A DNA stretch of 64,000 nt from Saprospiraceae bacterium (GTDB lineage Bacteria; Bacteroidota; Bacteroidia; Chitinophagales; Saprospiraceae), in the NCBI GenBank assembly GCA_025055285.1, contig JANWXM010000013.1, positions 1 through 64,000 on the forward strand. The letters are read 5' to 3'. A program made the position numbers and the translations under genes. Positions 23,595 through 34,741 of the stretch are shown in pieces (within the stretch, counting starts at the first letter, position 1; every line of letters starts with the position of its first letter). The notes beneath the pieces are model-generated. The model was not told where the DNA came from. It saw nothing but the letters and a program-made list of their open reading frames with translations, and did not search any database.

Positions 23595-24242
23595 ATGCCC
23601 TTAGTCTTACTCCTGTTTTTCCTTGCGTCGGCAGCATTCCCCGTCTTATCCCAAACAATTGTTCCTGAGGGTATTAATGACACATTTAACCTCTCGTGTG
23701 CCAAATGTCGTATGCGCGTGGATGGCGTATCGCTCACGCATGGGCAACACGCCTTGCCGATGAATGTCCGAAAGCCCGTATCTATGAACTTGCTTTTGTG
23801 GCGCTACTACGACAACATTTTGGGTAAACAAGCCTACATGGCCCAAAAGCCCTTCTGGACTTCAGCGATTCAATTGATTGATGAGGTGCCTGACGATGAT
23901 CTGCTGTCGTTGCACATCAACTTAACCTGGACAGACTCCTTGGCGCGCGAACACCGTTTTTACCTCGTAATGGCTGGCCTGACTAAGCGCCATTTAAGCG
24001 CTTTGCCCGTCATAACTGTCACCGACCCTCAAGATACCTATGCTCCCTTGCGCTTTAGCGCCTCTGTGCAGATCTTTCACGATCGCAATGTTTGGGAAAC
24101 TTTTGAGGCTCTCGAGGGTATTGCTATGCTAGAGAAGTTCGACCCTAGAACGGGTAGCCTTACGGGCTCTTTCGATTTCGTGGCCCAGCGCGTGGGGATG
24201 GAGAAAAAAGGTGTTTTTCAGAGCGGTTGGTTCAGCCGTTGA
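23595..24242 (+). CDS. Secreted CxxC protein of unknown function
   Basis: This 215-residue protein has a signal peptide (ends PVLSQ) and a single C-x-x-C pair shortly after it (L-S-C-A-K-C-R-M). The rest is beta-rich without a motif I recognise: F-W-T-S-A-I-Q-L-I-D-E-V-P and L-R-F-S-A-S-V-Q-I-F-H-D. The C-x-x-C could bind metal or form a disulfide, but it lacks the flanking residues of thioredoxin or haem sites. The gene converges on the CRISPR effector operon, overlapping its last gene by 11 bases, and has no visible functional link with it. Confidence 0.65.
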   Translation: MPLVLLLFFLASAAFPVLSQTIVPEGINDTFNLSCAKCRMRVDGVSLTHGQHALPMNVRKPVSMNLLLWRYYDNILGKQAYMAQKPFWTSAIQLIDEVPDDDLLSLHINLTWTDSLAREHRFYLVMAGLTKRHLSALPVITVTDPQDTYAPLRFSASVQIFHDRNVWETFEALEGIAMLEKFDPRTGSLTGSFDFVAQRVGMEKKGVFQSGWFSR

Positions 24243-25104
24243 CTTCTGTGGGCCTCCAGAGGCCAAAAGAATCTATGTAAAAGCGCCCTTCCGTTTGAAG
24301 TAGACTGCCAGGAGTATGAAACACTCCTTGAGCTTCGAGGTGTTGACCGGCGTATTGCCTAGCGCGCGCTGAGTTGGAGCGCCATTCGCGCCCAACCAGT
24401 GGCTCTATGTTGCCCACAACAGTGTTAGCACCAGCGTGGGCATGGGCTAAGAGATATCCATTCTCAGGCATTTGTACGACTACCTTTTCGCCCTCCAGGT
24501 TGAACGTCGTTTGCACACAGTCCTGATGGCTCCAACCAACTGTTTCGGTGGGCACACAGCGCACTAGTTCTACTGCGCCCCAACCGTAGGTACGCTCAGC
24601 GCCGAATTGTAAAGCTTGTAGGGCCTTTTGCCAGGGCAAGGAGCTGCCGTTTTTTTCAAACACAAACCCTTTGAGAAACACTGGTTTGCCCTCGTCTATG
24701 GTGTGCGGAGCGATGAACTCCACTTCGTGTAACATGCCCTCTTTAGCCGACTGGACGGGATAACTCAGCGCCGCACTGACGTAGCTGCCTATAAACCGAT
24801 AGCGAAAAATCGCCTCGTTGAGCCAGGGCCATTCAACGACGTATTCGTCGCCGCGCTGAAGCGCCGGGTAAAAGTAGGTGTAGGCCAGCTGCTCGTGCAC
24901 CTGCTGGCCGTATTGCTGATAGAGGCTCGAGTCCGTTGCTGCTCCTGCTGTAGCCATGCGCGTTAAGCGCAGGGTTAAGGCGCCCCAGAAAGTCCGGCCC
25001 AATACATAGGGGCGCGTCAGGAGCAGATTGCCTACCTTGCTCCAGCCGACGTGCAAAGGCGCACGCAGGCGAAAGACAACTTCGTAAGCAGTCCAGGTGC
25101 TCAT
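24232..25104 (-). CDS. Type III CRISPR RAMP protein, Cas5-group (Cmr3/Csx10-like)
   Basis: This 290-residue RAMP protein has an N-terminal ferredoxin-like strand followed by L-H-V-G-W, then T-R-P-Y-V-L-G-R-T-F-W-G-A-L (about 30-43), the Cas5-type version of the 'pIpGsslrGalr' motif, and a glycine-rich loop G-A-E-R-T-Y-G-W-G-A at 168-177. In type III complexes the Cas5 subunit caps the crRNA 5' handle and contacts Cas10. It is the last gene of the operon and the only Cas5-type candidate, so it likely fills the Cmr3 role, though it is shorter than most Cmr3 proteins. Its ATG overlaps the cmr5 stop codon (ATGA). Confidence 0.78.
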   Translation of the reverse strand: MSTWTAYEVVFRLRAPLHVGWSKVGNLLLTRPYVLGRTFWGALTLRLTRMATAGAATDSSLYQQYGQQVHEQLAYTYFYPALQRGDEYVVEWPWLNEAIFRYRFIGSYVSAALSYPVQSAKEGMLHEVEFIAPHTIDEGKPVFLKGFVFEKNGSSLPWQKALQALQFGAERTYGWGAVELVRCVPTETVGWSHQDCVQTTFNLEGEKVVVQMPENGYLLAHAHAGANTVVGNIEPLVGREWRSNSARARQYAGQHLEAQGVFHTPGSLLQTEGRFYIDSFGLWRPTEVNG

Positions 25105-25511
25105 CGTTCGGCTTCAGTTGACTTTTTGGGGTTGCTTTCGCTCCCTGCCTTAGCGCCATAGCGAACGTAAATGAGCATTTGCTCTAGGGTCTCCTTGGCC
25201 AGTAGGAGGCGTTCGAGGTTCTGGGCAATATCCTCGTTGACGAACTTCAGCACCTTCTGAGCATCTGCGGTATCATCGGGCGGCACCCCTAGCCCTATCG
25301 CTTTTAAGAGCGCGCACATTTTCTCGCTGAGCTTCCTGCCGTTCTCCTTTTCCTTTGCAAACAAATAGAGGAAGCAAGCGTAGACGCCGTTTTCTTGAAG
25401 TACGCCTAAAGCTTTGGTGGCCGTGTTTTCGATGTCTTTGCACGTGGCAACAGCCTGCGCGTGTTTGGCCGCTAAGTAGTCTATGTTTATCTTATCTAGT
25501 AAGCTGCTCAT
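25101..25511 (-). CDS. cmr5: Type III CRISPR small subunit Cmr5 (Cas11)
   Basis: This 136-residue all-helical protein starts at the ATG at 25511. The frame runs to 25577, but the extra residues lie inside cmr4 and look random. The pattern fits Cmr5: A-x-x-x-A-x-A-V near the N-terminus, G-V-Y-A-C-F-L-Y-L-F-A-K-E in the middle and an E-T-L-E-Q-M-L-I-Y-V-R-Y-G-A-K-A helix at the end. Cmr5 subunits stack along the belly of the effector and help hold the target RNA. The start overlaps the end of cmr4 by 20 bases and its stop overlaps the cas5-like start. The family is short and diverse, so the call relies partly on position. Confidence 0.78.
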   Translation of the reverse strand: MSSLLDKINIDYLAAKHAQAVATCKDIENTATKALGVLQENGVYACFLYLFAKEKENGRKLSEKMCALLKAIGLGVPPDDTADAQKVLKFVNEDIAQNLERLLLAKETLEQMLIYVRYGAKAGSESNPKKSTEAER

Positions 25512-26460
25512 GGTACTGCGATTGAAGGGTTTCAAAGTTTTGTTCTTTAGGTCGGCCGACGAGGGCAATGCGCCCAAAGCCGCGCGTGCCCATACCGCCT
25601 ACGCCAAGCCATTCGATGAGGCAGAGGCCAGCAGTGAGCACGTCAGCAGGAGAAGACCATTTTTTGCTATCATCTTTAGGAAAATTACCTCGGTAGTCAT
25701 CAATTATGGCTTCCATCGTCAGGAATGTCGCCCTAGGAATGGCCTCATACGTAAACAACGCGCCTTCTTCGGCTGCGCCCGTTTCGGGATCTATGCTTAC
25801 CGAGGTGCGCACCTCTAAGTTGCTGTTGACGATTTGGCTAAAAAGCGCGTCGGATACCAGTGCTAAGCGGTCTTTGACAACATTCCAGGGTTCACTGCTC
25901 CACACTTCAGGAGCATTTATTTCTACTCTTCCAGCGGAAGGAAGCATGAGCCAGCCCAGGTTAAGAGGGTTTTTCCGCTCCCAGGTTAAAAAAACACCCT
26001 CTTGGGAGAGAGATGAACCACTTAAATTTACCGAGAACCCTGCCTCTTTCAATCGTTGTGCAGTGCTGACCCATATGGGGCCAACCATAGAATAGACAGG
26101 AAAGAGAAGGATGTGTGCGTCAAAAATGTTGACTACACCGGAGTAAGCCATTACTTCCTCTCCTTCGTTGCTATCGTTGGCCTTTTGTTTTTTAATATAG
26201 CCAAAAGTGTAGCAGATGGGATTCTCATCCGGTTTCTCTACAGCATCGTGCTTTTGACCGGCAGCGGCTGGTGTGCCATAAAGGTAAGCGGCGTAAGCGC
26301 GTATAGCGCCGTGTAGGCTAGTGCCGGGTATTTTGGGCAAGCGCGTGCCGGGATCTCGCACGATGGCGTTGTCCACACGCCCGAGGCGATAGCCGCCCGT
26401 GCCAATGTGTACAGGGTCAGTAGTTTGGAGCAAGTAGCGAAGTCGCACGTAGGTGGCCAT
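25492..26460 (-). CDS. cmr4: Type III CRISPR backbone subunit Cmr4 (Cas7)
   Basis: This 322-residue RAMP protein is the Cas7 backbone that coats crRNA and cuts bound target RNA. It opens with D-P-V-H-I-G-T-G-G, followed by G-R-V-D-N-A-I-V-R-D; Asp30 in V-D-N matches the position of the Cmr4 catalytic aspartate, so RNA cleavage is probably retained. L-P-K-I-P-G-T-S-L-H-G-A-I-R (41-54) is the classic RAMP motif and the end carries G-V-G-G-M-G-T-R-G-F-G-R, a glycine-rich loop. It lies 12 bases after cas10. The Cas7 family assignment is firm. Confidence 0.92.
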   Translation of the reverse strand: MATYVRLRYLLQTTDPVHIGTGGYRLGRVDNAIVRDPGTRLPKIPGTSLHGAIRAYAAYLYGTPAAAGQKHDAVEKPDENPICYTFGYIKKQKANDSNEGEEVMAYSGVVNIFDAHILLFPVYSMVGPIWVSTAQRLKEAGFSVNLSGSSLSQEGVFLTWERKNPLNLGWLMLPSAGRVEINAPEVWSSEPWNVVKDRLALVSDALFSQIVNSNLEVRTSVSIDPETGAAEEGALFTYEAIPRATFLTMEAIIDDYRGNFPKDDSKKWSSPADVLTAGLCLIEWLGVGGMGTRGFGRIALVGRPKEQNFETLQSQYHEQLTR

Positions 26461-26472
26461 ATGAGATGCATT

Positions 26473-29268
26473 TTATTGCTTTAAAATTTCCATGTACAAT
26501 TCGCCTACGTCAGCCAAGAGACCACTGCAACTGGCGTGGATGAGGAGTTCTTTTTCTTGAGTATCCATGTTTTTCCAAGAAGTCCGTTTTGGCCATTCGG
26601 CATTGGCCAAAGTGTCGGCGGCGAATCTGCGAAAAGTAGCATCGTCTTCTATGGGTTTGTCGTGTCCGTACCATAGCTGACGCGTGGCCTCGATGCTGTG
26701 AATCACTAAGTGGCGTTGGCGCCGGGAGAGGTTCTGGAGGCAGCTCCAAATGCGCGCTGCATCGGTCAGTTCGTCTAAGTAGAATGGTCGCGTTGGACGG
26801 CTCAGGCGCCTGCCCTGGCTATTGTAGTAAACTTCGAAGCGGCGGGCATTGGTGTCTAAGAATTCGAAGTCGAACGTAGCGGGTGTAAAATAAATCGGAT
26901 CTCCTTCTTTCAAGTCGTCAACATGGATTAGGTAGCCCTCTTGCTTGGTCCAAGGATTGTGCGCCTTCACCCTTCGACTGCGGTCAACGGGTTCGGCATC
27001 TGTATCTAAGAAGGCATACGGATACCACAAGTCTTTTGTCTTACCGTCGCCCATAAGCAGTGGCACGCGCCAGCAGAGCTTACGGCCCTTACGTTCCAGA
27101 TGGATCTCTGCTATTTTAGCCAACTGCCCTTCTTCATCGGTTTGGATGGTCTTCTTTTGAATGCTCCACCCTCGCATTTCGGCTTCATTGCTTCGCTCCA
27201 ACATGGCGCGCCCAGCATCGAGGATGGCCCGCAGGGGTGCGCGTCGGTTAGCAAATATAGCGCCGAGGTGAACAGGTAAGCGATTGCGCACCTTGCCCAT
27301 TTCGCACTCGTATTTGCCACGAATGGCAGACACGATGTTTATTGCCTCTGACGCAGGCACGAGCATCATAAAGGCATTAGGCTCAGCCAGTATGGGAATA
27401 ACAGGAGCGTAATAGCCAATTTCCTCAATGCTTAGGCTTTGAAAAGTTCCTATTGGCTGGCTGCCTGTACCATACTCTGAAGGCGTATGAACAGATACCG
27501 TGCTTACTTCCTTCAGGAAGGCTATTACTGGCTGGCCGAGTTGCTCTCCTGAGCTCAGGTAGGTCAAGTTATCGCAAGAGATGAAAGCACTCCCCTCCCA
27601 CAATACGCTCATCTTGAGTCGGCCTCTGACTACCTCGTAAGCATGATAGGGAAGGAGCGACAGCTTGCCATCTTTGGGTATAAAACTCCCTCTTATTCGC
27701 AACCGAGGATGTTGGCTTTGTTGCTTATTCTGTATTTCTGCACTTACCTCTTGCCAAAAGCGCCGCGTAGTCTCCCAAATGCGGCGCAGGCGACTAAAAG
27801 AAGGCGTTTTCGGAGTAGCGGGCTCATTCTTTGTATTTTGTGCGTCAGCTGGCGCTATCAAGAGCAGTGTTTCCACCAGTCGCCCGCTCAACCAGTGTTG
27901 CAGGTCGAAGCGCCCTGTGATCAGGGCCACCCGGCCATTTTTATCGGCCACTTCATCGAGCCATATAGTCTGTTGTTGCTTTTGAATAACCCATTCTTTG
28001 GCGCGATCGGTGCGGCGTTTTTCGCAAATATCGCATACTCGCCTTTCGAGGGCTTTTTGGCCTGGCCCTTGCGGTCTAAGACCACATACCGAGCAAACTT
28101 CAGCAGGCGCTTTACCCTGTTGCCAGTATGCGCTTATCTTTTCGACGTCAAGAGAGGATGTTGCCCTCGAAGACAAGATGCCAATGATGTCCGGCAGTTC
28201 ATCTTTTAAAACGGGTGACTGTTCGGTAGCCTGGTCATCCGATGGCTGCTTGAGGTCTTGCTCGGTACATGACTGCTTAGTATCCTTTTTTTTAGACGAC
28301 CACTCAGGATCCTGCCCCCACCATGGTTTTTGCTCCAGGTATACCTGCGGTGCCAGTTCCGAACCTATTTGCAAGTTTGGGTCACCTTTTATTGTACTCG
28401 CAGCAAAGGCGTCGAGAATGCAACTCGCAAGCGTTTTGCCATTGGCGTTTGCCTGGTTTAATAAATCTTCAAGATCAGGCGCCACGTAAATGCTCCCATT
28501 TTCATCGCGATAGACTTCGCTTGCTATGGGATATTTAACCTCTAAAAGTGTTCGTACTTCATTTAGACCATTAGAAAGCAGCTCCATTCTCGCCAGGAGG
28601 TCTGGCACCTTTTCTACTTGAAGCAGGTAGCTCAGGCCGTCTAAGCGTATGCTGAGCAAGCGCCAGCGTAAAGAATTAGCTTCTGGCGCATTGTTCGAAA
28701 GAACAACCCTTGCCAGTGCAGCTTTGTACAATGCGCCTACCAGGACGCCCCAGCTCCAAAGGTCTACTTCGTTGATGGGACGCCGGGTATCGGCTACGGT
28801 TTGGGAAAAGAGCTGTTCAACGCTTTTGTGGGTATTCTCTCGGTCGTGCAAGTTCGCCCAGGGCAGCTTCCAGAGTTCTTCTGTAAGATTGGTCGGAACA
28901 TTTCTTTCAAAACCAAAAGGCGTACTTAAAAAGGCATTAGGATAGCCTTGCTCGCCTCCAACAGGCTCTTGTTTATCAAAGTGAGCGGTGTTGTGGGCGC
29001 GACTGAGGTAGCCTCCGAGGACTGGCGAAGCCTCACTGCGGTTGTTTAAGAGTTTTAGAATGGGCCCTTCTTCATGAAGCAAATTTACCTTAAGTTCTTG
29101 TAAGTTTTGGTACTTTTTACCCAGCTCGTTCCTCGGCAGGCCGGGTCCTTGGCGAGCTTGACTATTCAAGAAATCATCGGAGCATTTTCGATAATCATGC
29201 AGCCATCCTACTACTTCGGCCAGGAGGATATCTTTGCGATGGTGCACCAGTTGGTTCAAGTCATACAT
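26473..29268 (-). CDS. cas10: Cas10-type large subunit, Csx11-like, with degenerate cyclase motif
   Basis: This is the 931-residue signature subunit of the type III module. The N-terminal HD nuclease motif is present (W-L-H-D-Y-R-K, His24-Asp25). A zinc-binding region has Cys392-x-x-Cys395 and Cys412-x-x-Cys415. Two palm-like regions follow: G-R-V-A-L-I-T-G-R-F-D-L (about 445) and the second near 620-690, ending V-H-L-G-A-I-F-A-N-R-R-A-P-L-R. Where active Cas10 has G-G-D-D, this protein reads E-P-N-A-F (629-633), so synthesis of cyclic oligoadenylate is unlikely. Size, HD plus zinc region and lost GGDD fit the Csx11 family assigned to subtype III-C. The start overlaps the cmr6 stop by eight bases. 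An acidic, low-complexity segment (about 318-355) is probably an unstructured insertion. Confidence 0.88.
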   Translation of the reverse strand: MYDLNQLVHHRKDILLAEVVGWLHDYRKCSDDFLNSQARQGPGLPRNELGKKYQNLQELKVNLLHEEGPILKLLNNRSEASPVLGGYLSRAHNTAHFDKQEPVGGEQGYPNAFLSTPFGFERNVPTNLTEELWKLPWANLHDRENTHKSVEQLFSQTVADTRRPINEVDLWSWGVLVGALYKAALARVVLSNNAPEANSLRWRLLSIRLDGLSYLLQVEKVPDLLARMELLSNGLNEVRTLLEVKYPIASEVYRDENGSIYVAPDLEDLLNQANANGKTLASCILDAFAASTIKGDPNLQIGSELAPQVYLEQKPWWGQDPEWSSKKKDTKQSCTEQDLKQPSDDQATEQSPVLKDELPDIIGILSSRATSSLDVEKISAYWQQGKAPAEVCSVCGLRPQGPGQKALERRVCDICEKRRTDRAKEWVIQKQQQTIWLDEVADKNGRVALITGRFDLQHWLSGRLVETLLLIAPADAQNTKNEPATPKTPSFSRLRRIWETTRRFWQEVSAEIQNKQQSQHPRLRIRGSFIPKDGKLSLLPYHAYEVVRGRLKMSVLWEGSAFISCDNLTYLSSGEQLGQPVIAFLKEVSTVSVHTPSEYGTGSQPIGTFQSLSIEEIGYYAPVIPILAEPNAFMMLVPASEAINIVSAIRGKYECEMGKVRNRLPVHLGAIFANRRAPLRAILDAGRAMLERSNEAEMRGWSIQKKTIQTDEEGQLAKIAEIHLERKGRKLCWRVPLLMGDGKTKDLWYPYAFLDTDAEPVDRSRRVKAHNPWTKQEGYLIHVDDLKEGDPIYFTPATFDFEFLDTNARRFEVYYNSQGRRLSRPTRPFYLDELTDAARIWSCLQNLSRRQRHLVIHSIEATRQLWYGHDKPIEDDATFRRFAADTLANAEWPKRTSWKNMDTQEKELLIHASCSGLLADVGELYMEILKQ

Positions 29269-30211
29269 GATATTGGTTCCAGGCTTTGATGAAGGTTTCC
29301 TTGAATGCGTCGGGGTTTAGAATAGCATCCTCTGCCTTTGCGTAAGCTAGGCCGTAGCCACTGCTGGTTTTGGCGCCGAAGCCATACTGAGTAAGCATAG
29401 CGCGCAGGGCGCGAGCAGTAGCCTGGAGGTCTGTTTGTGTTGGTGAAGCCGTTGCCGCTTGTGCTGTAGAAGGGCTTAGCGGTACGTAGAGGAGTTGAAT
29501 GACGCCTTTTGCACCTACAGGCACGCATTCGAAGAGGATAGGGCCGCGTTTACCTACGTTGGTTTTGCGGTCGTGCGGGTTGAGCACTTCCAGCCCTAAG
29601 CGGTCGAAAAAGGTTGGGAAAAAGTGCAAAAAGCCGCTTTGGAAGTGTTCGTCTTCGCCTTTTTCATTGCCAAAAAGGCGGATTTCGGTTGCTGTGTCTC
29701 TCGCTATCTTTCGGAAAGCAGCGCGCAAAGCGCCTTTCCATTGAGAAGCAGCAATGTACGGGACTTTGAAGACGCGTTCCCTTTTGAGTGGATTATCCAA
29801 AATATGGAACAGCTGGTCGTCGCGGCTGATGTAGGGCTTTTGCAAGGTAAAGGGCAGTTGAAGCGCCCAGGCGTGAGGGGGCAGATGCGCCGGGTCTGGC
29901 AAGGTTGGCACTATACCAAGTTGGCGCATGAGGCGAAGACGCTTTTCGAGGAAGGCGGCGGCGTCTTGTTCGACCCAGCGCCGATAGCCGCCCGTGTGAG
30001 GGCGTATTCCCATACGCGCGCGGTCGCGGTAGGGCGTGTTAATGGCCTGAGCTAGCAAGTCGAGTCGAGCGACCGGGTCTTTAACCTCATCCACTTCGCG
30101 CCATGCGGCAGGCACATTTGGAATATCGCCCGCCAGCCACCGATAAGCATCGAGCTGGATGTGACCAGGCTGGAGAAAAAATGGGTAATGGGTATGGAAA
30201 TCGTAGGTCAT
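29261..30211 (-). CDS. cmr6: Type III CRISPR RAMP protein, Cmr6-like (Cas7 group)
   Basis: This 316-residue RAMP protein has a long N-terminal extension (to ~115) typical of Cmr6. The main motif is V-P-Y-I-A-A-S-Q-W-K-G-A-L-R at 150-163, then F-G-N-E, S-G-F-L-H-F-F-P and N-P-H near 211, and the glycine-rich loop G-F-G-A-K-T-S-S-G-Y-G-L-A at 277-289, which is very close to the Cmr6 consensus (GiGAKTsxGYG). Cmr6 caps the crRNA 3' end of the complex. The gene starts only one base after the TOPRIM stop codon and overlaps the cas10 start, so it is fully coupled to both. Confidence 0.85.
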   Translation of the reverse strand: MTYDFHTHYPFFLQPGHIQLDAYRWLAGDIPNVPAAWREVDEVKDPVARLDLLAQAINTPYRDRARMGIRPHTGGYRRWVEQDAAAFLEKRLRLMRQLGIVPTLPDPAHLPPHAWALQLPFTLQKPYISRDDQLFHILDNPLKRERVFKVPYIAASQWKGALRAAFRKIARDTATEIRLFGNEKGEDEHFQSGFLHFFPTFFDRLGLEVLNPHDRKTNVGKRGPILFECVPVGAKGVIQLLYVPLSPSTAQAATASPTQTDLQATARALRAMLTQYGFGAKTSSGYGLAYAKAEDAILNPDAFKETFIKAWNQYHV

Positions 30212-30212
30212 T

Positions 30213-30896
30213 TCAGCATCTCAATAGCAGTAAACAAAGGCGAAAAATGTCGTTGAAGAACCTGATCGTCGGCCTTATTAAAACTATTTGAGCGAAAACT
30301 GATGGCGAAGTGTGTTTTTTTAGTATGGCAGCGTATAACCCAATGTAGTCCTTTGCTTCAAGGAGGGATATTCCATTCTTGGACAACAGATCTGGAATCT
30401 CTTCAGTGATTTTTTTTATGAGAGTGTTTCCGCTAATTATCCTTTGCCGCTCCGCTAAGGTCTGTGCAAGCTGAGGCTCCAAAGCTATAGCCAGTAGATA
30501 GTCGTCTATGGTAGACTTGGTGAAGATCTCATTCCACCGATAATTGGCAACATGAAGGACTAGCCGAAAGTCAGCCGCTTCCGCAGCGAATAGAAAAACG
30601 TTGTCTGTTATCGTTTCTACCTGGATCGAGGTCCTAATTTCTCGGTTCTTAAACATCTTTTTTATCATTTCTTCGATCCCTTGTTTCAGGCGTTCGACAG
30701 TCTCGCCCTCATCTAAGTCGCGCATGATCAGGGTTCTAAGCGGCTTTATCTCCAAAAGTGGTTCCAAACTTTCAGCTGTTTTCTTATTTATAGAGCTTTT
30801 ACCATTGCTCGAAATAATGTCGCCGGGAAAACCCACTCTTTTGAGTACGGCCACTTCCGTCTTGCCTTCAACAAATGCCTTCGTATTCATCTTCAT
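30213..30896 (-). CDS. TOPRIM-domain protein embedded in the CRISPR operon
   Basis: This 227-residue protein opens with a TOPRIM-like core: F-V-E-G-K-T-E (Glu10) then I-M-R-D-L-D-E-G-E (Asp60 and Asp62), the E ... DxD arrangement that binds Mg2+ in OLD nucleases, primases and topoisomerases. The remaining ~150 residues are helical, with a hydrophobic, Arg-containing tail. No helicase or primase domain is present. The gene overlaps the end of the upstream ATPase by up to 29 bases and ends one base before cmr6. Split ATPase/TOPRIM pairs occur in anti-phage defence (OLD-like; PARIS AriA/AriB are one known example), and a nuclease or effector role is inferred from this. A second ATG at 30890 is possible. 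Confidence 0.72.
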   Translation of the reverse strand: MKMNTKAFVEGKTEVAVLKRVGFPGDIISSNGKSSINKKTAESLEPLLEIKPLRTLIMRDLDEGETVERLKQGIEEMIKKMFKNREIRTSIQVETITDNVFLFAAEAADFRLVLHVANYRWNEIFTKSTIDDYLLAIALEPQLAQTLAERQRIISGNTLIKKITEEIPDLLSKNGISLLEAKDYIGLYAAILKKHTSPSVFAQIVLIRPTIRFFNDIFRLCLLLLRC

Positions 30897-32190
30897 GGCG
30901 CAATTGGAATTGAAGCGGTGCCTCGAAATCTTCCAGTATCCTTGGGTCGAGTCCAGACTCTAACCATGAGGTGAGGTGGTGAACGTCGAACCAAGAGTTT
31001 TTAAAGACCCCATCTCGCAGGTCGAACAGGAAGGCCAACGCCTCAGCAGAGGGAAAGTATTCCTGTTGGAGCAAGCGGGTGAAATGCGCCAGTAACTCAA
31101 TACTGTGCGTAGCCAGGAAGACTTGAATAGGTTTATCTTTGACCATGTCTACAACTACAGTAAGTAAGCGCGTCAGCGTAGCGGGATTATTAAACACTTC
31201 TGGCTCCTCCCACAAGAGCATTCCTGGCCGTTCGTCGCTGACAGTTTCGCGCAAGGTTACTAAGGCAGTCAGCAATTTGAAGGCGTGGCGCGCCCCGTCG
31301 CCGAGCTGGTCAATGGGCAAGGGGGCCTTTCCAGGGAAGCGCACGTAGCCGGCATACCCTGGCTGTCCGTCAGAGGCTTCCATCATTTCTATTTTCGCTC
31401 CTTCTAAAGAAGGAAAGACTTTAGTCAGCTGAGCGGCAATTTTTTCCCACCAGTCGAGGATTCGGTGGTAGTTTTCCTTGACAAAGTGAGCGGGCAGATG
31501 AGCATCTATAGTGTTGAAATTAAAAGAGATGACATGCTTAGGCGCTGGGCGCTGGCCTTGAGTAGCCCATACAGCGAGCTTGTCTATGTCTGAGTTTTGC
31601 TCCCAACGATAGACCCAAGTGTCTTCCCACAAATAGTGCCAGTCGGCATCAGGCGGATGGAGGCCTTGCTCGCGCAAGTAGGGAGGCACCATGGTATTGT
31701 CGAGGTACTCGGGCTTTGGTAGGGTAAATAGGGCGATTTCAGCGCAGTCTTTCTCCTTGAAAATGAGTTTATCCTCGTCTTGATTAGGCTCAGGCGGAGG
31801 GGCGGCTAAGAGGAACCCTGGCCAAGAGGGAAGGTCAAGTTCGACGCGAATGCCGCCTTGCCGGGTCAGGCCGGTTCCAGATTTTTTCCATTCGGGCTTT
31901 GCATTGTGGCGCTGGCGCAGGCAAGGTAGAGGTGCCTGTCCCAGCAAGTCAGGCGCAGAAGTAGTGGCTTCGAGGGCGCTGACTCGGGCGCGCGCCTCGT
32001 CTTCGGCATTCATGAGGTCTTCGCGGACGAACTGCGCCGGCCGCCCACTCGTGGCACTTAGATAGAGCAGTTCGAGGACGGCCGTCTTGCCGCTGTTATT
32101 GGGCCCAATGAAAACATTGAAACGCCGCAGGTTATCTATGCGTCCCTGCCTAATGCCGCGAAAGCGGTGGATGAAAAGTTTTTTGATCAT
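30868..32190 (-). CDS. OLD/RecF-like AAA ATPase embedded in the CRISPR operon
   Basis: This 440-residue ABC-type (SMC/RecF-like) ATPase has its Walker A at 29-36 (G-P-N-N-S-G-K-T), the double Asn being typical of OLD-family proteins. A signature-like L-G-D-G-A-R-H lies at 296-302, Walker B at about 323-330 (G-M-L-L-W-E-E-P-E), and an H-loop A-T-H-S at 360-363. The region between 50 and 290 is a specific insertion of unknown structure. The ATG at 32190 places the start of the ATPase core at residue 1; the frame runs open to 32235 inside cmr1. It is 14 bases downstream of cmr1 and overlaps the TOPRIM gene, so the two probably act together as a split OLD-like system, here inside a CRISPR effector operon. 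Confidence 0.85.
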   Translation of the reverse strand: MIKKLFIHRFRGIRQGRIDNLRRFNVFIGPNNSGKTAVLELLYLSATSGRPAQFVREDLMNAEDEARARVSALEATTSAPDLLGQAPLPCLRQRHNAKPEWKKSGTGLTRQGGIRVELDLPSWPGFLLAAPPPEPNQDEDKLIFKEKDCAEIALFTLPKPEYLDNTMVPPYLREQGLHPPDADWHYLWEDTWVYRWEQNSDIDKLAVWATQGQRPAPKHVISFNFNTIDAHLPAHFVKENYHRILDWWEKIAAQLTKVFPSLEGAKIEMMEASDGQPGYAGYVRFPGKAPLPIDQLGDGARHAFKLLTALVTLRETVSDERPGMLLWEEPEVFNNPATLTRLLTVVVDMVKDKPIQVFLATHSIELLAHFTRLLQQEYFPSAEALAFLFDLRDGVFKNSWFDVHHLTSWLESGLDPRILEDFEAPLQFQLRHEDEYEGIC

Positions 32191-32204: not shown

Positions 32205-33308
32205 TCAAGCTCCTAAGCCGAGCGTTTTTTTCCACTCCTTAGGAGAAATAGAAGTAAGCTTGCCCTCCATGCCCAGTGTATTTGCCCAAATATCGGTGTT
32301 TTGGAACATCGCCCAAACAGATTTTGGGTCTACAAGCCCATCTAGCCATACGGAGCCGCGAATTTCCCACGTATAGTCCGCTCGATAGGCCCAACTAACC
32401 GCTACTTTTCCGCGCTGGCGCTCGGCCTCGACCAATCCCCAAAAGTCGCGCTCGCGGCCCCAGGAGCGCCGCCAGTGGTCGAAGCGCCAAGAATTTTTGA
32501 GCAAAGGCGCTAAGGGTATAGTTTGCCGAGAAAAAGGCTGGACGAAGCGCGCAACGCGCTCTAATCCTGACAATTGCATCCACCAGTTGGAGTGCTCGGG
32601 CTGGAAGCAATAGCGGAAGAATCCCATTTTGTCAAGGCGAGGTAAATCTCGCTGAGCTGTTGAGTTGCCGTACCCCTGGGCTGTTTTTTGGGGTAGAAGG
32701 TGTTCCCAAGAAAAGTCGCCCATAAGAGGCTTTACCTCGTCCTTGTTGAGGATTTCCACTACACCATAGCCAAGCTGAGGTTTGGGGCCTAAACTGGCGT
32801 GTTGCTCTGCGAAGTGCAACAGCGCGAGCACTGGCGCTAGGGCAGAAGGTGCACCTTGTAAGCGCAGCGAGAACGTTCCCAGATGGCCAGGAGGCAAGAA
32901 CCACCCGCGGCTTCGGCCTTCGGGGCGGATGTTGAGCAGCTGCTCGCCGGTCCAAAGCGCTTGTGTGTGGTCTTCTACAACCTGCAACTGAAAGCGACGG
33001 CGCCAGCCTGTGGCGCCAAAAAGCTGACAAACGTCGCATAAGCCGGCGTCGCGCAGGCGTAGCCGCTCGTCGAACTCCTGGCTTTGCTCATACGCTGCGG
33101 CATCGAACAGGCACTTTATGTCGCCGCTCGGGTCGCAAGCCCAACCGCCCAAAGCGCGCACGATCGCTTCGTGCCACCAGCGCAGGCTCCCCAGCAGCCC
33201 TGACTCATAGATACGGGCCATCTTTCCGTTCGCTCCAGCCGTCCACAAGGGAGTAAGGGTCTTGAGCACGACTTTTACGGCAGTGTTTTTTTCGCTGGGT
33301 GAGGCCAT
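32205..33308 (-). CDS. cmr1: Type III CRISPR RAMP protein Cmr1
   Basis: This 367-residue RAMP protein is the first gene of the operon. The classic Cmr1 opening is clear: L-T-P-L-W-T-A-G (18-25), S-G-L-L-G-S-L-R-W-W-H-E-A-I-V-R-A-L-G-G (36-55), Cys58 and Cys66, then C-D-V-C-Q-L-F-G-A-T-G-W-R-R-R-F (91-106). The C-terminal half is longer and family-specific. Cmr1 binds the crRNA 3' end region and helps in target recruitment in III-B complexes; the same subunit is used in III-C. A Bacteroidota promoter-like box lies 27 bases upstream, and the whole operon probably starts here. Confidence 0.92.
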   Translation of the reverse strand: MASPSEKNTAVKVVLKTLTPLWTAGANGKMARIYESGLLGSLRWWHEAIVRALGGWACDPSGDIKCLFDAAAYEQSQEFDERLRLRDAGLCDVCQLFGATGWRRRFQLQVVEDHTQALWTGEQLLNIRPEGRSRGWFLPPGHLGTFSLRLQGAPSALAPVLALLHFAEQHASLGPKPQLGYGVVEILNKDEVKPLMGDFSWEHLLPQKTAQGYGNSTAQRDLPRLDKMGFFRYCFQPEHSNWWMQLSGLERVARFVQPFSRQTIPLAPLLKNSWRFDHWRRSWGRERDFWGLVEAERQRGKVAVSWAYRADYTWEIRGSVWLDGLVDPKSVWAMFQNTDIWANTLGMEGKLTSISPKEWKKTLGLGA

Positions 33309-33436: not shown

Positions 33437-34741
33437 TTAAAATAAGCTAACCAGCGCCCACGCTAGGAGTAGAGCAAAGCTGTAAAACGAGAACCACGGC
33501 CAATTTAGCCATTGGCTTGTTGTGATGCCCGAGTACTTCCAAACATACCAAGAAAGCACCACTTTTTCCCAGAAAAAAGAGAGTACGGCCGACCATGCCA
33601 CTCCTGGCAATCCCCACAAATGGATAAACAGAAAACCTGTAGCAATCTTTATCCCTAACTCGGATAAACCTACTTTGAGCAAGACAGAAGTATTCCCACA
33701 GGCCAAGACGATAGTATTCGGCAGCAACACCCGACTAATGGTGAGCAGCAGATAAATTCTAAATAGTGCCGCTGCTGGCTCGAAAGGAGGGCCAAACAAC
33801 ACTTGGAAAAGCCATGGCGAGGCAAACACGAGGGCGATGCTGAGCGGAAATACGCGGTGGAACAGCCGCGTACTTTCGCGCCGCATTTCGGCCAAGCCTG
33901 CAACAGGCTCTGCAGCTATGCGAACGGTGAGCGCTGTGCCCAGCCCTGAAGCAAGCGCTTGAGCCAGCGGCAGTTCGCGCGAACCATAGCGATATAAAGC
34001 AAATACTGTCTCGTCAGCATAGTACCAGCCTACTAACCAACTGTCAAACAATACAATAGCCTGGCCTACTAAGAGGTTAGCTACTAAAGGCGCAGAGAGC
34101 CGCACATAGCTCGGCCAAAACATCGGACGCCACGCAACCTCGACAACATTCCGCAGGGCGGCAACACACCATAGCAACCGAAGTACGCCCAAGGCTGCCA
34201 GAGCTTTCATGCTGCCCAATATTCCCCAACCGGCAAAGGCTGGAAGCGCTACAGCTACTACATAGCCGCCAAACGACACTGTAGCCCAAGCCAATAGCGC
34301 GCAAGGTCGCTTATGTAAGGCATAGACATGCTCAAGCGGCAATGTAGCCAGGTGCACCCACAGGTGTACCAAAAACCAGTTCCAACCATTAGCGGGCAGA
34401 AAGCCCGTTAGGGCGGGAAACAATACTAACCGACCCGCCCAGAACGCATAGCATACGAGACCTGAAAGAAGCCCGAAAAGAATAAAAACTTGGAATAGAA
34501 AAACAGGGCGCTCTGCTTCTGCTAGATGAGCATAACGAGGAATGATGCCTTGTAGGAGCCCATTTGCCCAGAAGAATGCAGCTACAGTGCCGGCGAAGAG
34601 CATGGCTTCAAATTGGCCAACAGCCTCTATGCCTACTGGGCTACGCGCCAGCAAAATGCTAGCCAGTACCGCTGCACTCAGGCGCAGCACTTGGAAAGCT
34701 TGTAAGGCTGTGCCCAGGGTGAGCTCCTGACGCTGAGGCAT
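33437..34741 (-). CDS. MOP-superfamily flippase (polysaccharide/O-antigen transporter type)
   Basis: This 434-residue integral membrane protein has about 12-14 hydrophobic segments over its whole length and no soluble domain. The arrangement, with a loop G-S-R-E-L-P-L-A-Q-A and the middle R-Y-G-S, resembles Wzx/PST-type lipid-linked oligosaccharide flippases and MATE-fold proteins. These move undecaprenyl-linked saccharides across the inner membrane. There are no glycosyltransferase genes next to it, so the substrate is open. Its start codon lies three bases after the stop codon of tamB, suggesting a shared transcript and possibly a link to envelope assembly. Confidence 0.72.
   Translation of the reverse strand: MPQRQELTLGTALQAFQVLRLSAAVLASILLARSPVGIEAVGQFEAMLFAGTVAAFFWANGLLQGIIPRYAHLAEAERPVFLFQVFILFGLLSGLVCYAFWAGRLVLFPALTGFLPANGWNWFLVHLWVHLATLPLEHVYALHKRPCALLAWATVSFGGYVVAVALPAFAGWGILGSMKALAALGVLRLLWCVAALRNVVEVAWRPMFWPSYVRLSAPLVANLLVGQAIVLFDSWLVGWYYADETVFALYRYGSRELPLAQALASGLGTALTVRIAAEPVAGLAEMRRESTRLFHRVFPLSIALVFASPWLFQVLFGPPFEPAAALFRIYLLLTISRVLLPNTIVLACGNTSVLLKVGLSELGIKIATGFLFIHLWGLPGVAWSAVLSFFWEKVVLSWYVWKYSGITTSQWLNWPWFSFYSFALLLAWALVSLF

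What the first reader, a model, noticed from the sequence alone, without database searches (positions are those of the whole stretch)
30213..32190. OLD-like ATPase and TOPRIM pair built into a type III CRISPR operon
Between cmr1 and cmr6 sit an SMC/RecF-like ATPase (GPNNSGKT Walker A, WEEPE Walker B, ATHS) and a 227-residue TOPRIM protein (E10, DxD at 60-62). The two overlap each other by about 29 bases; the gap to cmr1 is 14 bases and to cmr6 one base, so they are part of the effector transcript rather than a passing insertion. Split ATPase/TOPRIM pairs are known anti-phage toxins or nucleases (OLD, PARIS-like). Putting one inside a Csx11-type operon suggests either a CRISPR-triggered nuclease effector or a backup defence system that shares expression with it. 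I infer this; I cannot tell how often the arrangement occurs.
Basis: partly seen in the sequence, partly recalled or inferred. Interest (0 to 1): 0.85.

Follow-up and report, generated by a model that had tools for sequence, protein, structure and literature searches.

The report
Swappable nuclease pair inside CRISPR operon
A bacterial CRISPR operon of a type that lacks the usual chemical alarm signal carries, between two of its core genes, an ATPase and a probable nuclease whose nuclease end appears to have been exchanged between related bacteria, which makes the pair a candidate for that type's missing weapon.

Summary
In a Saprospiraceae genome a type III-C (Csx11/Cas10c) operon carries an OLD/AriA-type ATPase and a probable TOPRIM protein between cmr1 and cmr6, spaced as stated. 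The arrangement is conserved: 3 of 3 Saprospiraceae loci found have it, against 0 of 7 III-C loci elsewhere with a readable junction. Full-length relatives of the ATPase turned up only at this junction in the genomes sampled. Cas10c has an HD motif but no cyclase motif, so a second-messenger effector is unlikely; III-C is reported to lack known effectors. New here: between cmr1 and cmr6, DNA identity to the closest relative is 72% except in one sharply bounded block (31123-30217; 43%), which starts inside the ATPase near its H-switch and ends at the TOPRIM stop. In the TOPRIM the relative resembles another genus instead. So ATPase tail and TOPRIM were most simply replaced together, while the ATPase body stayed with the cmr genes. 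I read this as a CRISPR-tied ATPase adaptor with an exchangeable nuclease. Function is inferred, the TOPRIM call rests on weak profile evidence, only three loci are in hand, and an independent PARIS-like system riding in the operon is not excluded.

The parts
32205..33308 (-). cmr1 (RAMP protein of the III-C effector)
   Evidence: TIGR01894 5.5e-14; PADLOC Cmr1 1.7e-20
30868..32190 (-). OLD/AriA-type ATPase, 440 aa from ATG 32190; Walker A GPNNSGKT, LGDGARHAF signature-like motif, Walker B WEEPE, LATHS switch
   Evidence: AAA_21 7e-18, AAA_15 2.7e-13; AriA 8.8e-23, PDC-M38A 9.6e-22; the ATG start is shared by the three homologues
31124..32190 (-). ATPase body (about residues 1-355), which stays with the cmr genes: 77% identical to the sister locus
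30217..31123 (-). exchanged module: ATPase tail (last ~85 residues) plus the TOPRIM gene; 43% DNA identity to the sister locus against 72% outside
   Evidence: change-point fit over cmr1-cmr6, LLR 119.8; support intervals 31179-31084 and 30228-30207; same-codon test
30213..30896 (-). probable TOPRIM nuclease subunit, 227 aa (E10, D60, D62)
   Evidence: OLD-like_TOPRIM 0.032; combined profile against DUF4276; homologous over its C-terminal half to the protein of the other two loci, E 2.1e-6
29261..30211 (-). cmr6
   Evidence: PADLOC Cmr6 4.6e-68
26473..29268 (-). csx11/cas10c, HD motif at residues 24-25 region (HD in LHDYRK), no cyclase motif
   Evidence: TIGR02682 2.7e-134; Cas10c 5.4e-220
25492..26460 (-). 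cmr4
   Evidence: TIGR02580 1.6e-29
25101..25577 (-). cmr5 (ORF as listed; its true start is probably later, the profile match begins at residue 30)
   Evidence: PADLOC Cmr5 1.5e-38
24232..25104 (-). cmr3
   Evidence: PADLOC Cmr3 3.8e-79

Best explanation
A two-part effector built into a type III-C CRISPR system. The Cmr/Cas10c complex has no cyclase motif and so probably makes no cyclic-oligoadenylate messenger. I propose that binding of a target RNA is passed by direct contact to the ATPase, whose conserved body is matched to the Cmr1/Cmr6 side of the complex. The ATPase, working like AriA of PARIS, then frees or activates the TOPRIM nuclease held by its C-terminal tail, and the nuclease damages nucleic acids of cell or virus and stops the infection. 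The nuclease end (ATPase tail plus TOPRIM) is an exchangeable cassette. SHOWN: gene order and its conservation in three genomes, absence of a cyclase motif, block boundaries and conflicting relatedness. INFERRED: physical contact with the complex, triggering by target RNA, nuclease activity and its target, and that the block arose by exchange.
For: Same junction in 3 of 3 Saprospiraceae loci and in 0 of 7 others with a readable junction. Full-length ATPase relatives only at this junction in draws of 298, 396 and 395 genomes (overlapping draws, at most 4-5 first-look candidates scored per genome). ATPase body identity window/sister 77%, like cmr1 68% and cmr6 72%, while tail 28% and TOPRIM 26% diverge jointly. 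For the TOPRIM the sister matches the third genus at 50%, the window matches either at only 24-26%. No GGDD-type motif in the 9 Cas10c compared. [quoted passage not shown] The host genome has a type I-B locus with Cas6 and a ~41-repeat array that could supply guides. ATPase closest to AriA and PDC-M38A profiles.
Against: In G584 the pair with cmr1 and cmr6 persists although no Cas10c was found in that genome. In G429 the TOPRIM gene has an in-frame stop, no Cas1 was found in the genome and no repeat array in 60 kb around the operon. The HD motif of Cas10c may suffice for immunity, as PMC11229360 suggests for III-C. The TOPRIM assignment is weak for single sequences, and the structure models are too poor to help. 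Only three loci are in hand.
Confidence: 0.45

Rival explanations
1. An independent PARIS-like or OLD-like defence pair that was inserted into the operon and only shares its transcript. The ATPase senses some phage product itself and releases the TOPRIM nuclease.
For: Profile similarity to AriA and PDC-M38A. Pair with cmr1 and cmr6 retained in a genome where no Cas10c was found. Distant ATPase+DUF3226 pairs stand alone in the same family (2 of 3 distant ATPases looked at).
Against: At the cmr1-cmr6 junction in all three loci in hand, and no stand-alone copy of this ATPase family in the genomes sampled. The ATPase body diverges in step with cmr1 and cmr6.
Confidence: 0.33
2. A toxin-antitoxin-like or addiction module that stabilises the operon, the ATPase holding the TOPRIM toxin in check.
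For: Overlapping two-gene pair, tail and nuclease diverge together. Pfam describes AAA_21 as a putative AbiEii toxin domain. The sister's nuclease frame is interrupted while its ATPase is open.
Against: Such modules need not sit at one junction of one operon; the ATPase body is conserved about as well as the cmr proteins.
Confidence: 0.12
3. A non-defence accessory of the complex (for example ATP-driven turnover of target-bound complexes, or repair-like processing) in which the second protein is not a nuclease.
For: Single-sequence TOPRIM evidence is weak and D62 is not conserved. RecF/SMC-like hits of the ATPase.
Against: The combined profile matches DUF4276 in register with E10 and D60; 0 of 120 column shuffles reach the score.
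Confidence: 0.1

Closest known systems
PARIS (AriA ATPase + AriB Toprim tRNase; PMC12409363, passages read)
   Same: Two adjacent genes, OLD-type ABC ATPase and small Toprim protein; AriA is the best PADLOC profile for the window's and the third locus's ATPase and a near-equal second for the sister's.
   Different: No AriB or DUF4435 match for the second protein (that AriB is DUF4435 is recalled); sits inside a cas operon; ATPase tail and nuclease diverge as one block.
OLD family nucleases incl. Gabija GajA (PMC10568477, passages read)
   Same: ABC ATPase coupled to a probable Toprim.
   Different: Two genes, not one chain; neighbours are cmr1 and cmr6, not a GajB helicase.
PADLOC 'ATPase-Toprim_I-B' (PDLC02915)
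   Same: A CRISPR-linked ATPase-Toprim by its name; hits the N-termini of the sister's and third ATPase (2.6e-7, 4.7e-8).
   Different: Model of 623 positions named for type I-B; only the Walker A region (about 43 residues) matches, and it is not among the 25 rows shown for the window's ATPase. A full-text search for the name found no paper.
Type III cOA-activated ancillary effectors (CARF/SAVED proteins)
   Same: Effector gene encoded with a type III operon.
   Different: No CARF or SAVED match among the rows returned; Cas10c has no cyclase motif.
Nuclease-protease pairs acquired repeatedly by unrelated immune systems (PMC12799240, passages read)
   Same: A two-gene effector acquired by existing immune pathways.
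   Different: Different enzymes: a protease activates the nuclease; the word Toprim does not occur in that paper's main text.

Membership tests
Type III-C CRISPR-Cas | Csx11/Cas10c large subunit with Cmr1, 3, 4, 5, 6 | tested here: met
Type III-C CRISPR-Cas | Cas10 cyclase motif absent | tested here: met
   No GG[DE][DE] in 9 of 9 Cas10c compared (L024, partial, and L032 were not included); a looser pattern rang once, AGDE in the sister at residue 768
Type III-C CRISPR-Cas | HD motif (reported for about half of III-C, PMC11229360) | tested here: met
   HD in the window's LHDYRK; HD in 7 of 9 compared, HM in L022 and L023
PARIS | AriA-like ABC ATPase | tested here: inconclusive
   AriA profile 8.8e-23, but PDC-M38A 9.6e-22 and in all 102 families at E 0.1 also match
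PARIS | AriB (DUF4435, recalled) Toprim partner | tested here: not met
   no AriB or DUF4435 match for the window protein, the sister's pieces or the third locus
PARIS | ATPase hexamer sequestering AriB, released by phage proteins such as Ocr | not testable with these tools
   -
TOPRIM proteins (DUF4276/OLD-like) | profile match | tested here: inconclusive
   OLD-like_TOPRIM E 0.032, below cut-off; single sequences against a DUF4276 profile reached by 10, 9 and 5 of 150 shuffles; the three-sequence profile, the best of five query constructs tried, by 0 of 120 column shuffles
TOPRIM proteins (DUF4276/OLD-like) | Glu after strand 1 and DxD after strand 3 | tested here: inconclusive
   E10 and D60 conserved in 3 of 3, D62 is Glu in 2 of 3
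Gabija / fused OLD | ATPase and Toprim in one chain, GajB helicase beside GajA | tested here: not met
   separate genes; neighbours are cmr1 and cmr6
cOA-dependent type III effector | CARF/SAVED sensor domain | tested here: not met
   none among the rows returned for the two proteins in Pfam, NCBIfam and PADLOC (for the ATPase PADLOC showed 25 of 102 rows)

The most novel reading that the evidence does not exclude
The first effector of a cyclase-dead type III CRISPR system: target RNA binding is relayed by protein contact, not by a second messenger, to a resident ABC-ATPase adaptor. Its C-terminal tail is a docking port for interchangeable TOPRIM nucleases, swapped between lineages as a tail-plus-nuclease cassette.
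Probability: 0.33. Interest if true: 0.88.

Novelty: new variant of a known kind. Interest (0 to 1): 0.68.

Why it matters
Type III-C systems are reported to lack both the cyclase and any known effector (PMC11229360, passages), so how they protect cells beyond the HD domain is open. A conserved, operon-embedded ATPase/nuclease pair gives a concrete candidate to test. The block border suggests where the part that reads the CRISPR complex may end and the part that holds the nuclease begin. If right, it would add a route for coupling RNA recognition to cell-level defence without messengers.

Tried and rejected
Structure prediction gave poor models (TOPRIM pLDDT 54; ATPase pLDDT 44), and Foldseek of the TOPRIM model returned nothing below E 0.001 and no Toprim entry among the 50 rows shown. 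I use them only to note that the predicted strand/helix order does not contradict a Toprim core. PDB sequence searches gave no relevant match for the TOPRIM; the ATPase profile hit PtuA at 4.4e-6, the single ATPase nothing at 0.01.

Viral contigs: no relatives for A1, A2 or the window TOPRIM. Plasmids: no relatives of the ATPase, window TOPRIM or sister TOPRIM N-piece. The source of the window's module was not found (298 genomes; 60 genomes gave only the sister at E 8.1e-4).

Considered and rejected: second-messenger effector (no CARF/SAVED row, no cyclase motif). Rapid adaptive divergence instead of replacement: at identical residues the same codon is used at 336 of 697 sites in cmr1, ATPase body and cmr6 but at 18 of 76 in the module (Fisher p 4.9e-5), so silent sites differ too; caveat, in a 26% alignment some identical residues are chance pairs, which lowers that figure. 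Low GC as a sign of foreign origin: the tail and TOPRIM are low in GC in all three loci, so it says nothing for the window. Upstream ORF 33437-34741 as part of the operon: not found at the sister locus, which has an epimerase there. DUF3226 as the closest Toprim type: hhalign E 0.06, over residues 34-91 only, leaving out E10.

Direct BLASTP of window TOPRIM with the sister N-piece found nothing (E 10); homology rests on the profile comparison over the C-terminal half.

Full report
OBSERVATION. A same-genus relative (G429) is a Saprospiraceae MAG: its contig has the length of CALJPQ010000021.1, which the named collection returned for the same query. On the minus strand the genes cmr1, ATPase, TOPRIM-like, cmr6, csx11/cas10c, cmr4, cmr5, cmr3 follow one another with gaps or overlaps of at most 29 bases, except that the cmr5 ORF as listed overlaps cmr4 by 86 (its profile match starts only at residue 30). 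No CRISPR array was found in the window or the next 20 kb. A type I-B locus (Cas1b, 3b, 4b, 5b, 6b, 7b and 8b recognised; Cas2 not tested) with an array of about 41 repeats lies on another contig of the same genome and could supply guides in trans; that use is inferred.

CONSERVATION. In the phylum draw, 8 of 395 genomes had a Csx11 match, 6 over the curated cut-off; in the genus 2 of 42 genomes matched the window's Cas10c. Junction cmr1-cmr6: with the pair in the window, L018 (G429) and L038 (G584, another genus of the same family). Without it in L020, L021, L022, L023 (other families of the phylum; ORFs directly adjacent or overlapping, no ATPase or TOPRIM hit), L031 and L033 (two cyanobacterial plasmids) and L032 (a Thermus plasmid in which IS elements, not the pair, interrupt cmr1 and the stretch to cmr6). 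That is 3 of 3 against 0 of 7. L019 and L024 end too soon to tell, and L025 (a weak match) showed no III-C genes; these three are left out of the count. Searches for the ATPase profile found full-length relatives only at this junction: 1 of 395 genomes in the phylum draw (E 1e-12, own genome); 5 of 298 in the family draw at E 1e-6, of which G000 and G584 are full-length and three (G402, G650, G654) are partial, 24-32% over the C-terminal part and 38-52% over some 45 residues around Walker A; 2 of 396 in the order draw at E 1e-10. The draws overlap, are samples, and scored at most 4-5 first-look candidates per genome. The sister was not among the family and order matches although it has the gene, because it was not drawn or listed there; it came. 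A scan of genome contigs with two narrow peptide patterns found only the sister (1 of 164 stretches). Other phyla could not be searched with a centre of their own. Of the three distant ATPases, two (L040, L041) are followed by a DUF3226 gene and one (L039) by no such gene.

THE BLOCK. Aligning the window operon with L018 gives DNA identity mostly 0.6-0.8 from cmr1 to cmr3, with one long block near 0.45. Single 120-column windows also dip elsewhere: 0.54 in cas10 (27532-27412), 0.48 and 0.52 in the 3' part of cmr3 (24553-24433, 24373-24255). A two-change-point fit over cmr1-cmr6 puts the block at 31123-30217, identity 0.43 inside and 0.72 outside, log-likelihood gain 119.8 over one rate, support intervals 31179-31084 and 30228-30207. 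The left edge is inside the ATPase, at about residue 355 (interval about 338-369), after Walker B and near the LATHS switch (359-363); the right edge falls on the TOPRIM stop. Protein identities (the ATPase was split at KPIQ by eye, before the fit), window/sister, window/third, sister/third: ATPase body 77, 44, 42; ATPase tail 28, 28, 37; TOPRIM 26, 24, 50; cmr1 68, 42, 44; cmr6 72, 50, 47. So in cmr1, cmr6 and the ATPase body window and sister are close, but in the TOPRIM the sister goes with the other genus. The sister/third TOPRIM distance is in line with their other genes, so most simply the window is the locus that received a different module; there is no outgroup to prove it. Same codon at identical residues: 18 of 76 in the module against 336 of 697 in cmr1, ATPase body and cmr6 (chance pairs in the weak alignment lower the first figure). 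The switch motif changes with the module: LATHS in the window, ITTQS in the two others. The two TOPRIM types remain homologous over their C-terminal half (hhalign E 2.1e-6). The joint change of tail and nuclease suggests that they touch each other; that is inference.

WHAT THE SECOND PROTEIN IS. Single-sequence evidence for TOPRIM is thin: OLD-like_TOPRIM E 0.032; HEC-01B 0.0086 and PDC-M38B 0.022 for the sister N-piece (that these are Toprim families is inferred from their place beside the ATPase models); none for the third. Against a profile of 13 DUF4276 proteins (16 matches; three gave no open frame in my script; four of the 13 lie below Pfam's cut-off; that DUF4276 is a Toprim family is recalled), single sequences were matched or beaten by 10, 9 and 5 of 150 shuffles. 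Of five query constructs tried, four gave E 0.033-0.087 and the profile of all three loci (for the sister only its N-piece) E 0.0063, score 24.8, aligned in register with E10 and D60; 0 of 120 column shuffles reached that score, the highest being 18.5. E10 and D60 are conserved in all three, D62 is Glu in two. With the ATPase neighbour this makes TOPRIM probable (my estimate 0.8), not proven. ATPase and TOPRIM show higher identity at second than first than third codon positions, as expected under purifying selection, though an alignment made on amino acids adds to that pattern.

FUNCTION. Cas10c here has an HD motif near its N-terminus but no cyclase motif; none of the 9 Cas10c compared has one. 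PMC11229360 (passages) states that cyclase sites are absent from III-C and that this corresponds to a lack of known effectors, and that half of III-C have an HD domain which may suffice; PMC12669027 (passages) also lists III-C among subtypes with inactivated cyclase. A messenger-activated effector is therefore unlikely. In PARIS the ATPase hexamer holds the Toprim AriB and frees it on sensing a phage protein (PMC12409363, passages). By analogy the Cmr complex could be the trigger here. That Cmr1 and Cmr6 sit next to each other at one end of the Cmr complex is recalled, not tested. Results against: in G584 the pair, cmr1 and cmr6 persist, followed by a type IIG restriction gene and an IS element, but no Cas10c was found in that genome and no cmr3, cmr4 or cmr5 in the 20 kb read. 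In G429 the TOPRIM frame has a stop while the ATPase is open, no Cas1 was found and no repeat array in the 60 kb read around the operon. The first may be decay or independence; the second may be loss of a costly effector or an error in a MAG.

PRINT. I found no report of this arrangement. Searches of the open-access library; subscription papers, supplements and preprints were largely not covered. PADLOC holds a model named ATPase-Toprim_I-B, so a link of such proteins with type I-B has been noted by others. Papers seen: passages only of PMC11229360, PMC12669027, PMC12409363, PMC10568477 and PMC12799240.

VERDICT. New variant of a known kind (OLD/PARIS-like pair), in a new setting with an unusual block exchange.

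Noticed in passing
window 31102-31116 (ATPase residues 359-363): H-switch motif is LATHS in the window but ITTQS in the sister and third locus; the change goes with the TOPRIM type.
   Followed up: partly
L018:5559-6266: The sister's TOPRIM frame has an in-frame TAA while its ATPase and cmr genes are open.
   Followed up: partly
L038:3457-8053: In G584 cmr6 is followed by a type IIG restriction-modification gene and an IS transposase; no Cas10c was found in that genome.
   Followed up: partly
L045 (G000:C16:23000-42900): Type I-B CRISPR locus with Cas1b, 3b, 4b, 5b, 6b, 7b, 8b and about 41 repeats in the window's genome; Cas2 not tested.
   Followed up: partly
L031:1362-6280 and L033:368-5181: Two cyanobacterial plasmids carry a divergent cluster beside their III-C operon; in L031 it is annotated with ThiF, Mov34/JAB and E2-ligase-like genes, in L033 mostly as hypothetical.
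   Followed up: no
L040:6576-8192 and L041:1742-3359: Stand-alone OLD-type ATPase plus DUF3226 pairs in other Saprospiraceae, with ATPases of 315-316 aa against 440 aa here.
   Followed up: partly
L002 (G000:C11:7263-7421): A second ATPase-like stretch in the window's genome, 45% over 54 residues only.
   Followed up: no
window 33437-34741: 434-aa ORF upstream of cmr1 without any family match, not found at the sister locus.
   Followed up: no
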